Origin: an uncultured Bacteroidia bacterium
Lineage (GTDB): Bacteria > Bacteroidota > Bacteroidia > JANWVE01
DNA: 48,499 nt
Direction: 5' to 3'
Assembly (NCBI GenBank): GCA_938028625.1
Contig: CALIZB010000013.1
Coordinates: 1-48,499, forward strand
The notes under the pieces: generated by a model
The model's database searches: none
The model's input: the letters and a program-made list of their open reading frames with translations, nothing else
What the model was told of the DNA's origin: nothing
Program-made: the position numbers and the translations under genes
Part shown: positions 2,609 through 23,425 of the stretch, one piece after another
Position numbering within the stretch: position 1 is the first letter of the stretch
How the letters are laid out: every line of letters starts with the position of its first letter

Positions 2609-3307
2609 ATGACAAAATTACTTAACGGAAAATCCCATCTTTCTGAAGCAGAAATTGAACTAATTGGTGAAAACCACATTGCAACAAATACGGATACTCC
2701 TCTAAAACCTGATGCTTTTTTGCTCTCTGATGAGACAAAAATAGAACTTATTGAGGAAAAATTCCGTGAAATTATGGACATTCTGGGTTTAGACCTTACT
2801 GATGACAGTCTTTCAGGTACACCGCACAGAGTAGCCAAAATGTATGTAAAAGAGATATTCTCAGGGCTAAATCCTAAAAATATGCCTAAAATCTCTCTTT
2901 TTGAAAACAAATACCAATATAATCAGATGCTCGTAGAGAAAAATATTACTTTGTTTTCTCACTGTGAACATCATTTTGTACCTATTCTAGGCAGAGCGCA
3001 TGTGGGTTATATTTCATCAGGCAAAGTGATAGGTTTATCTAAACTGAATAGAATTGTAGAATACTTTGCTAAACGCCCACAAGTTCAAGAACGTCTGACC
3101 TGCCAAATAGCTAATTGCCTTAGTGAAGTATTAGAAACAGAAGATATAGCCGTCGTTATTGATGCTAAACACCTGTGCGTATCCACACGCGGAATAAAAG
3201 ACACAACCAGCAGTACGGTTACTTCTGTATTTAGAGGAAAATTTGAACAAGAGAGTACTAAAAAAGAATTCTTGCAGTATTTAGACTTAAAAACCGAAGT
3301 GTTTTAG
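2609..3307 (+). CDS. folE: GTP cyclohydrolase I
   Basis: A 232-residue FolE, which converts GTP to 7,8-dihydroneopterin triphosphate, the entry step to folate, queuosine and biopterin-type cofactors. Zinc-site residues are visible: Cys119 and His122 in SHCEHHFVP, and Cys190 in AKHLCVSTRG. TPHRVAKMYV (residues 71-80) and the QVQERLT stretch (residues 158-164) are typical of the family. The length is normal, including the roughly 40-residue N-terminal extension. It lies 80 bases after the PTPS gene on the same strand. A near-match -7 element (TAATTTTA) ends 6 bases before the ATG, so it may have its own promoter. Confidence 0.96.
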   Translation: MTKLLNGKSHLSEAEIELIGENHIATNTDTPLKPDAFLLSDETKIELIEEKFREIMDILGLDLTDDSLSGTPHRVAKMYVKEIFSGLNPKNMPKISLFENKYQYNQMLVEKNITLFSHCEHHFVPILGRAHVGYISSGKVIGLSKLNRIVEYFAKRPQVQERLTCQIANCLSEVLETEDIAVVIDAKHLCVSTRGIKDTTSSTVTSVFRGKFEQESTKKEFLQYLDLKTEVF

Positions 3308-17899: not shown

Positions 17900-17907
17900 T
17901 ATTTTTG
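17900..17907 (+). promoter_or_regulatory. -7 promoter element TATTTTTG
   Basis: Ends only 3 bases before the ATG at 17911, one of the tightest spacings in the window. Confidence 0.6.
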
Positions 17908-17910
17908 TAC

Positions 17911-19200
17911 ATGCAAAACAGGTTTGCTTATCTAACTACAAGATTAGAAACATATACTCCTGCTTTACCTTTTCAGATATTTCGTGTATGTTGGGCTATA
18001 CTTATGATAATCAGTTCAGTGCGTTTTATGTATCTTGGCTGGATAGAAGACCATTATGTAAGTCCTGTATTTCACTTTAAATACTGGGGCTTTGAATGGA
18101 TAGAACCGCTTGGCAGAACAGAGTTGTATGTCGTTCATTTTTTAATGATTGTAAGTGCAGTGGGAATTGTCATCTGTACAAAAATACTTTATCGTATCTC
18201 TGCTGTATTGCTGTTCCTTTCTTTTACATATACCGAACTGATTGACTTAACGTATTATCTTAATCACTATTATTTTGTAAGTTTGATTTGTTTTTTACTG
18301 TGTATTATTCCTTCTCCGCCTGCTATACGGGATAAAAATGCAGTTATGCCTGCCTGGGTAATTTTTCTGTTTAAGTTTCAGATAAGTATAGTGTATATTT
18401 ACGCAGGATTAGCTAAAATCAATTATGATTGGCTGTTTAATGCTTTACCTCTTAAAATATGGCTTCCTGCCCATTATGATTTACCCGTAATAGGTGTGCT
18501 TTTCACCTATAAAATAACACCATATATTTTCTCATGGGCAGGTATGTTGTATGACTGTACTATTCCCTTTTGGCTAATGTGGAAAAAATCACGCCCTTAT
18601 GCGTATATTGCGGTTATTGTATTTCATACCATAGTGGGATTATTATTTCAAATTGGTGTTTTTCCTTTGGTAATGATGGCTTCCACCTTGATATTCTTTG
18701 ATTTTCAAAAACAAAAATCTAATCCTGTACTTTTACCTGATAAAAAACATGTTATTCCTATATTTTTACGGTATTTTTTAATGTTTTACATTGTTTTTCA
18801 GATACTATACCCATGGCGTTATTTGCTTTACAAGGGTAATTTATTTTGGACAGAAGAAGGCTATCGTTTTTCGTGGCGTGTAATGTTAATGGAAAAAGCA
18901 GGAACAGCCACTTTTTATGTAAAAGATAGCCGTACAGGTAGAGAAGGTATAGTCAACAACCGAGAGTTTCTCAATGACCATCAAGAAAAACAAATGGCTA
19001 TGCAACCCGATATGATTTTACAGTTTGCCCATTTTCTTGGAAAGTATTATGAGAAAAAAGGTGTCTATAAGCCCCAGGTACGTGCAGAAGTGTATGTAAC
19101 GCTTAATGGCAAGCCCAGCCAACTACTCATTGACCCAAATGTAGATTTAATGAAAGAAAAAGACACTTTTATGTCAAAGAAGTGGATATTAGCACACTAA
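17911..19200 (+). CDS. HTTM-domain protein (vitamin K-dependent gamma-carboxylase homologue)
   Basis: A 429-residue membrane protein with about eight hydrophobic segments in residues 20-310. It begins LPFQIFRVCWAILMIISSVR and contains YIYAGLAKINYDWLFNALPL (about 165-185), hallmarks of the HTTM domain shared with vitamin K-dependent gamma-glutamyl carboxylase. The soluble tail after about residue 310 (RFSWRVMLMEKAGTATFYV) matches the start of the lumenal part of that enzyme but is much shorter than the animal protein. Animal enzymes carboxylate protein glutamates using reduced vitamin K; bacterial homologues are mostly uncharacterised. Menaquinone could be the electron donor here, which is inference. 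The start is set by the -7 box. Confidence 0.85.
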   Translation: MQNRFAYLTTRLETYTPALPFQIFRVCWAILMIISSVRFMYLGWIEDHYVSPVFHFKYWGFEWIEPLGRTELYVVHFLMIVSAVGIVICTKILYRISAVLLFLSFTYTELIDLTYYLNHYYFVSLICFLLCIIPSPPAIRDKNAVMPAWVIFLFKFQISIVYIYAGLAKINYDWLFNALPLKIWLPAHYDLPVIGVLFTYKITPYIFSWAGMLYDCTIPFWLMWKKSRPYAYIAVIVFHTIVGLLFQIGVFPLVMMASTLIFFDFQKQKSNPVLLPDKKHVIPIFLRYFLMFYIVFQILYPWRYLLYKGNLFWTEEGYRFSWRVMLMEKAGTATFYVKDSRTGREGIVNNREFLNDHQEKQMAMQPDMILQFAHFLGKYYEKKGVYKPQVRAEVYVTLNGKPSQLLIDPNVDLMKEKDTFMSKKWILAH

Positions 19201-21822: not shown

Positions 21823-22938
21823 CTATATAATTTGAACTTCACAAGTTGGAACTTTCTGTTTGAATTTGTTTAACCATTTTATATCTATACGCTTATCTAC
21901 TTTTAATAAAGCAAGTTGCGTGTTTTTCATAATAACTTCTATATTTTCAATAGGCGTATTTACAATTTCCAGACATTTTAAGTCTTTGGCATGAATAATA
22001 GGACTGATGTCTTTTACGCCTGTGTTGGAAAGGTCTAAATACTCCAAATAAGGTAAAGAAGCAAGGTGTTCGATACTTTTAATATCAGGATTGTGTCCAA
22101 TATAGACATGTGTAAGAGATTTACAGTTTTCTATGCCTTCTATACTTTTTATGTCAGTGTGCTGTAAGTTAAGATATTTTAATTTTTTCAGATTAACCAA
22201 AGGACGAATATGCTGTAAAGGTGTGCCTTCCAGAATAAGTGTTTCTAATTCATTGAGAGGATATAACGGTGAGATGTCCACGGCATGTTCTGTACCTTGA
22301 TATACAACCTCTAAATGCTTCAGTTTTCTCAATTTGCTGATAGAATTGAAATTATGTATATTGAGATATTTAAGTACAAGTTTTTCTAATCCTGTCACAT
22401 ACTCAATAGCATTGATATTTTTAATACTTGTAAAACCACTTCTAAGATATGAAAGACTGAAAAATTTAAGTTGTATCATGTCATAAATCGGGTCAAGAGA
22501 AACAGGTTTTACAATATCTACATCTAAACCTGTAATAATAGGTAGTTCTTTTACAGGTTTGAGGTCATCTATTTCGGTATCTGATTTTATATTGATAGTT
22601 TCTAATTTTTTGTAGGCATATTTAAGTTCTGTATCTGATAAATAAGGAGAGAGTCCATGACGAGTAAATATTTCCTGCCATACAGGAGAAAGGCTTTGTA
22701 ACCATTGTTTAATAGTAAGTTGTTTTTCGGTAAGGCGTATAGGTTTTTCTGCTTCTAAAAGTGCATTAAAATCTGTTTCAGAAACACGTAGCATTTGCTT
22801 TAATTCCAATAGCTCTTGATACTCTTCATTAGTCAATACGTCATCTGCCACAGCGTCTTTTATGGCTTTCATAAGCATTTCTTTACTTTCTTTCTCGTCC
22901 CAGTTAAAATAATGAAATATTTTTTTGAATAAACTCAT
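21823..22938 (-). CDS. Leucine-rich-repeat protein with a TerB/EF-hand-like N-terminus
   Basis: A 371-residue cytoplasmic-looking protein (no signal peptide). The N-terminal 60 residues are helical (AIKDAVADDVLTNEEYQELL) and resemble the acidic-loop segments of TerB-like domains. From about residue 150 there are leucine-rich repeats of about 22 residues: LEKLVLKYLNIHNFNSISKL, LKYLNLQHTDIKSIEGIENC, LEYLDLSNTGVKDISPIIHA. Repeats of this type are protein-binding scaffolds. It sits 8 bases after the membrane-protein gene and 3 bases before the 74-residue gene, so the three form an operon. The partner is unknown. Confidence 0.82.
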   Translation of the reverse strand: MSLFKKIFHYFNWDEKESKEMLMKAIKDAVADDVLTNEEYQELLELKQMLRVSETDFNALLEAEKPIRLTEKQLTIKQWLQSLSPVWQEIFTRHGLSPYLSDTELKYAYKKLETINIKSDTEIDDLKPVKELPIITGLDVDIVKPVSLDPIYDMIQLKFFSLSYLRSGFTSIKNINAIEYVTGLEKLVLKYLNIHNFNSISKLRKLKHLEVVYQGTEHAVDISPLYPLNELETLILEGTPLQHIRPLVNLKKLKYLNLQHTDIKSIEGIENCKSLTHVYIGHNPDIKSIEHLASLPYLEYLDLSNTGVKDISPIIHAKDLKCLEIVNTPIENIEVIMKNTQLALLKVDKRIDIKWLNKFKQKVPTCEVQII

Positions 22939-22946
22939 GTTAAAAG

Positions 22947-23425
22947 TTATTTAAGTTGTGTAATTTCTTCTTGTGATAAGTTGAGCGTTTCTATTATTTT
23001 TTCTATCACGGGCGGTCTTATAATAAACATCACAACTATAATGAAACCAGGTGCAATGTACAAAAATAGTTCATGGCTTGTAATAACAAAAAATGTGATA
23101 GGAATAAAAGAACACATATCCATAGGAGCTAATCTAACTATAAAAAAGTTCTATAAAGTGCTATTTTCTGCATAAGGGGCATAGTAGTTTTTAACTTGGA
23201 GTTAAAAACTTTGGGTAAAATTAAAATAGAGGTAATGAGTACAGATAAAAAGATTATGACCGCAATACTTACTAAAATCAAAACTATTTCTTCATCTTCA
23301 CTACTCTTTGCTTCTTGACTGAATGCCATGTAAAAAGAGATTATAGCTAATATAGGGGCAGATATCAATGTAAAATACATAATCTTAAGTTGTTTTACAT
23401 ACATCTCAATATCAAAATTTTCCAT
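22947..23425 (-). pseudogene. Four-helix Bacteroidota membrane protein, interrupted by a -1 frameshift
   Basis: From ATG 23425 the frame runs 95 codons to a TAG at 23138-23140. The protein plainly continues in the -1 frame to TAA 22947-22949, giving about 159 residues and four membrane helices. The reconstructed junction YRTF(L/F)IVRLAPMD and the tail FIIRPPVIEKIIETLNLSQE match a widespread Bacteroidota membrane family of unknown function, so the full-length form is ancestral. The break lies at TTTTTTA directly before TAG (minus strand; 23141-23147), the classical U UUU UUA slippery heptamer. It may be a one-base deletion in a T-run, a sequencing error, or programmed -1 frameshifting. The -7 box ends 4 bases before the ATG. 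Confidence 0.72.

What the first reader, a model, noticed from the sequence alone, without database searches (positions are those of the whole stretch)
22947..23425. Conserved membrane protein interrupted exactly at a U UUU UUA slippery heptamer followed by UAG
The zero frame reads ...AGA ACT TTT TTA TAG on the minus strand; the -1 frame continues for 64 codons and restores the conserved second half of a Bacteroidota four-helix family. The heptamer in phase (U UUU UUA) is the textbook simultaneous-slippage site, and the stop follows immediately. A -1 slip gives YRTFLIVRLAP, the expected length and sequence for the family. Alternatives are loss of one T from a T7 run (pseudogene or phase-variable tract) or a base-calling error in a homopolymer. 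If programmed, the gene makes a 95-residue two-helix form and a 159-residue four-helix form.
Basis: partly seen in the sequence, partly recalled or inferred. Interest (0 to 1): 0.6.

Follow-up and report, generated by a model that had tools for sequence, protein, structure and literature searches.

The report
Frameshifted membrane-protein gene, not recoding
A small bacterial membrane-protein gene is broken by a one-base frame change at a run of six Ts; its context looks like an ordinary indel mutation or an assembly error rather than a programmed ribosomal frameshift.

Summary
On the minus strand the gene reads AGA ACT TTT TTA TAG, with T6 at 23147-23142. The -1 frame stays open for 64 codons and restores a widespread four-helix Bacteroidia family. 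A -1-frame TAG just upstream confines the change of frame to about 12 nt.

The programmed reading is not supported. In-phase T_TTT_TTA is commonplace in this genome: 159 in 465 long ORFs, against 107 after codon shuffling. There is no SD-like stimulator and no downstream hairpin (z = +0.86). In E. coli the efficient U-rich heptamers end in Y, and U_UUU_UUA is not among those reported as efficient (PMC4066793). A stop codon right after this heptamer lowers slippage (PMC4373837).

Over 40 class-level homologues match, nearly all with open frames. At the homologous site none of 27 readable ones carries TTTTTTA. The two congeners lack the gene. Other interrupted genes occur in the same assembly. 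The copy also diverges at family-conserved positions, including the near-invariant Glu.

The best explanation is a one-base contraction of a T tract, as a real recent mutation or an assembly error. No close orthologue or read data was available, so incidental low-level slippage cannot be excluded.

The parts
23138..23425 (-). Zero-frame segment: 95 codons (two predicted membrane helices) ending ACT TTT TTA TAG; an alternative start ATG at 23404-23402 fits the G015 homologue better
23141..23147 (-). T_TTT_TTA heptamer (T6 tract 23147-23142) in phase, immediately before the stop
23138..23140 (-). Zero-frame TAG stop immediately after the heptamer
23151..23153 (-). -1-frame TAG upstream that limits the region where the frame change can lie
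   Evidence: read directly sequence
22947..23141 (-). -1-frame continuation: 64 codons (second half of the four-helix family) plus TAA
23121..23123 (-). ATG in the -1 frame 17 nt after the start of the zero-frame stop; possible reinitiation site
   Evidence: read directly sequence
21823..22938 (-). Leucine-rich-repeat protein gene starting 8 nt downstream of the -1-frame stop; conserved in both congeners, which lack the membrane gene

Best explanation
This is a normal four-helix membrane-protein gene of unknown function that carries a one-base frame change at a short T tract. The likely origin is contraction of a T tract by replication slippage (a recent mutation making a frameshifted gene) or, less likely, a homopolymer error in the draft assembly. 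As written, translation ends at TAG after 95 (or 88) residues and gives a two-helix fragment; the second half is made only at background slippage levels or not at all. Shown: the interruption, its confinement to about 12 nt, coding quality on both sides, intact homologues without the heptamer, and absence of stimulators. Inferred: the direction of the indel and whether it exists in the living cell.
For: Homologues are widespread (42 of 395 class genomes match) and almost all have uninterrupted frames. At the homologous codons none of 27 readable homologues has TTTTTTA. L028 naturally encodes Phe-Phe there (AGT TTT TTC ATC), so a T-rich codon stretch fits ordinary family sequence. T tracts of 7 or more are common in coding sequence of this genome (187 in 445 long ORFs), and in-phase T_TTT_TTA is more frequent than codon-shuffle expectation (159 against 107), so the motif is not treated as hazardous. 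No SD-like motif lies in the 30 nt upstream, no qualifying hairpin lies downstream, and the fold z-score is +0.86. Other interrupted genes were seen in about 0.78 Mb of the same assembly: an SBBP-repeat protein (L085), a sorting-signal protein (L093) and a CMP-sialate-synthetase-like gene (L096). The window copy keeps only 16 of 39 majority-conserved family positions (the lowest fraction of those compared) and replaces a 93%-conserved Glu by Asp. Both congeners lack the gene while keeping the neighbouring LRR gene, so the gene looks dispensable. PMC3711429 classes singleton frame interruptions as likely indel mutation or sequencing error.
Against: Both segments still look well coding and free of further stops, so any decay is very recent or a low level of product is useful. 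Of 187 T tracts of 7 or more in long ORFs, a one-base loss produces this exact heptamer-plus-immediate-stop geometry in only 1, although an in-phase heptamer arises in 28 and a stop within 3 nt in 27. No close orthologue exists in the held collections to show the ancestral tract length.
Confidence: 0.85

Rival explanations
1. Programmed -1 ribosomal frameshifting at T_TTT_TTA yields a two-helix and a four-helix product.
Against: No upstream SD-like element and no downstream structure; heptamer over-represented, not avoided, in the same genome; U_UUU_UUA is not in the list of efficient E. coli motifs, whose U-type heptamers end in Y, and the U_UUA tetramer stays within 3.6-fold of background even with a pseudoknot (PMC4066793); a stop as next codon cut frameshifting at this heptamer by about 70% in mammalian cells and reduced it in bacteria (PMC4373837); no homologue shares the site.
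Confidence: 0.06
2. Gene fission: the second half is translated separately by termination-reinitiation at ATG 23123, giving two two-helix proteins.
For: A -1-frame ATG lies 17 nt after the zero-frame stop begins; both halves score as coding.
Against: The separate second half would lack IVRLAP, part of the best-conserved motif of the family; no homologue is split there.
Confidence: 0.06
3. Phase-variable T tract that switches the gene on and off.
For: The frame change is at a homopolymer.
Against: T6 or T7 is short and ordinary here: 447 T6, 152 T7 and 41 T8 tracts in long ORFs; no homologue keeps a tract there apart from one T6 in an open frame, L028.
Confidence: 0.03

Closest known systems
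Singleton frameshifted genes and pseudogenes of prokaryotic genomes (PMC3711429)
   Same: Interrupted gene with intact homologues elsewhere, no conserved site, no shared motif, poly-T at the break.
   Different: Decay is not advanced: a single frame change and no other lesion.
HIV-1 type U_UUU_UUA -1 frameshift site
   Same: Same heptamer in the same phase.
   Different: No downstream stem-loop; next codon is a stop, which lowers slippage (PMC4373837); bacterial host.
Bacterial IS/dnaX type -1 frameshifting (PMC4066793)
   Same: A heptamer of the X_XXZ_ZZN type.
   Different: Known cases mostly use A-rich or U_UUU_UUC-type motifs with SD-like or hairpin stimulators and conserved sites; none of these is found here.

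Membership tests
Programmed -1 ribosomal frameshift site | In-phase X_XXZ_ZZN heptamer at the frame transition | tested here: met
   T_TTT_TTA at 23147-23141; but 159 such motifs occur in ordinary long ORFs
Programmed -1 ribosomal frameshift site | Stimulator: SD-like upstream element or downstream hairpin/pseudoknot | tested here: not met
   No SD-like motif, no qualifying hairpin, fold z +0.86; pseudoknots not modelled
Programmed -1 ribosomal frameshift site | Frameshift site conserved among orthologues | tested here: not met
   27 readable distant homologues lack TTTTTTA there; no close orthologue was available
Programmed -1 ribosomal frameshift site | Both products made in vivo | not testable with these tools
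   needs a reporter or proteomics
Recent frameshift mutation / pseudogene | Intact homologues elsewhere, interruption unique to this copy | tested here: met
Recent frameshift mutation / pseudogene | Relaxed constraint | tested here: inconclusive
   Lowest fraction of conserved positions (16/39) and loss of the near-invariant Glu, but codon bias still coding-like
Assembly or sequencing error | Reads show another tract length | not testable with these tools
   no reads held; draft genome of 170 contigs

The most novel reading that the evidence does not exclude
A stimulator-free U_UUU_UUA UAG site in a Bacteroidota bacterium is used at low efficiency to set a ratio of two-helix to four-helix membrane protein.
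Probability: 0.05. Interest if true: 0.5.

Novelty: already known. Interest (0 to 1): 0.1.

Why it matters
Mostly a caution: in AT-rich genomes a slippery-looking heptamer at a frame break is weak evidence for recoding, because the motif is common in ordinary genes and T tracts are where indels fall. If recoding were shown it would be a rare non-mobile bacterial example at a motif not known to be efficient in bacteria.

Tried and rejected
Close orthologues: two genome-contig scans, a viral contigs pattern allowing variable tract length, plasmids, and the genus, the order and the orders of G171 and G071. None gave a close orthologue. Rfam: nothing in the window. Pfam and NCBIfam: no named family for the membrane protein. 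Downstream hairpin or SD stimulator: none. My codon-bias frame-break scan also lists many ordinary adjacent genes, and the target itself did not pass the filters of that scan, so its counts are not a rate of broken genes. Two homologue loci (L027, L040) were mis-framed by my script and excluded. Structure prediction of the fused protein was not attempted, since the fused sequence is not in the DNA letter for letter.

Full report
Observation. The minus strand reads AGA ACT TTT TTA TAG, with the T6 tract at 23147-23142 and TAG at 23140-23138. The -1 frame runs 64 codons from 23141 to TAA at 22947. A TAG in the -1 frame at 23153-23151 confines the frame change to roughly 12 nt, in which the T tract is the only repeat. 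Codon-bias scores are coding-like in the zero frame upstream and in the -1 frame downstream, 0.20 and 0.16 bits per codon; 64-codon windows of long ORFs average 0.29 +/- 0.11 and no wrong-frame window reached 0.16. The interruption is therefore a real property of the sequence held.

Family. The joined 159-residue protein matches open frames in other Bacteroidia: G015 over residues 3-158 (E=1.9e-6) and G171 over 8-155 (31% identity, E=2e-11). A three-sequence profile finds matches in 42 of 395 class genomes, nearly all without internal stops. Pfam and NCBIfam have no named family for it. The first-stage description as a Bacteroidota four-helix family is fair. The start may be ATG 23404 rather than 23425.

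Context. The next gene, an LRR protein, starts 8 nt downstream of the -1-frame stop. Both congeners hold the LRR gene at about 70% DNA identity but not the membrane gene. There is no second copy in the window's own genome. The gene thus looks like an accessory, dispensable gene in this genus.

Is it programmed? (i) In-phase T_TTT_TTA occurs 159 times in 465 ORFs of at least 200 codons in about 0.78 Mb of the same genome, more than the 107 expected after shuffling codons. The motif is ordinary here and not avoided. (ii) There is no SD-like element in the 30 nt upstream, no hairpin meeting a simplified form of published rules downstream, and the 101 nt downstream fold no better than shuffles (z +0.86). 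(iii) In the E. coli survey of all 64 heptamers, the efficient U-type motifs end in U or C; U_UUU_UUA is absent from the list chosen for efficiency above 0.10% together with under-representation, and U_UUA tetramers stay within 3.6-fold of background even with a strong pseudoknot (PMC4066793). (iv) For the same heptamer, a stop as the next codon lowered frameshifting in bacteria and by about 70% in mammalian cells (PMC4373837). (v) None of 27 readable homologues has TTTTTTA at the homologous codons; L028 has TTT TTC there in an open frame, which shows that T-rich Phe codons arise at this place for ordinary coding reasons.

Base rate of broken genes. A codon-bias scan with manual reading of ten candidates showed other interrupted genes in the same assembly: an SBBP-repeat protein at L085 (DUF7948 upstream, SBBP downstream), a Por-secretion-tail protein at L093 and a cytidylyltransferase fragment at L096. 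Indels or errors therefore occur elsewhere in this assembly. L085 lies close to a contig end, so it may be an assembly problem.

Constraint. The window copy keeps 16 of 39 positions that are majority-conserved in the family, the lowest fraction among the 28 sequences, and has Asp at a 93%-conserved Glu. This fits a divergent or relaxed copy but does not prove decay.

Evidence on the other side. If one base is removed from each T tract of 7 or more in long ORFs, only 1 of 187 gives exactly this geometry; 28 give an in-phase heptamer and 27 a stop within 3 nt. The coincidence is notable but was picked after the fact, and an immediate stop is not a feature expected to help -1 slippage.

Conclusion. 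An ordinary one-base frame change at a T tract (mutation or, less likely, assembly error) is favoured at 0.85. Programmed frameshifting (0.06), gene fission with reinitiation (0.06) and phase variation (0.03) remain open, because no close orthologue, read data or protein data were available.

Noticed in passing
L008:695-907, 1151-1460, 2881-3115; L069:6467-6614; L078:17-151; L072:11433-11577 and others: A dispersed repeat of about 70-250 bp (GGCGTGTCCTTGCCCACGTCTCGCTACGCTCGTGTAGGCAAGGTCGGCGTGC...), visibly richer in G+C than its AT-rich surroundings, occurs at more than a dozen places in the window's genome and in congener G001, but not in the window itself.
   Followed up: partly
L085, minus strand, near position 326: A DUF7948/SBBP-repeat protein is interrupted by a frame change at a site without a long homopolymer, close to a contig end.
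   Followed up: partly
L096:974-1319: A CMP-sialate-synthetase-like gene downstream of a NeuB-like gene appears truncated or frameshifted.
   Followed up: partly
window 17905-19200: A bacterial HTTM plus vitamin-K-dependent gamma-carboxylase lumenal-domain protein (Pfam E 2.9e-61 and 1.3e-58).
   Followed up: no
L009:2641-3885: Congener G002 has a DUF2357 protein gene in the place upstream of the LRR gene where the window has the membrane gene.
   Followed up: no
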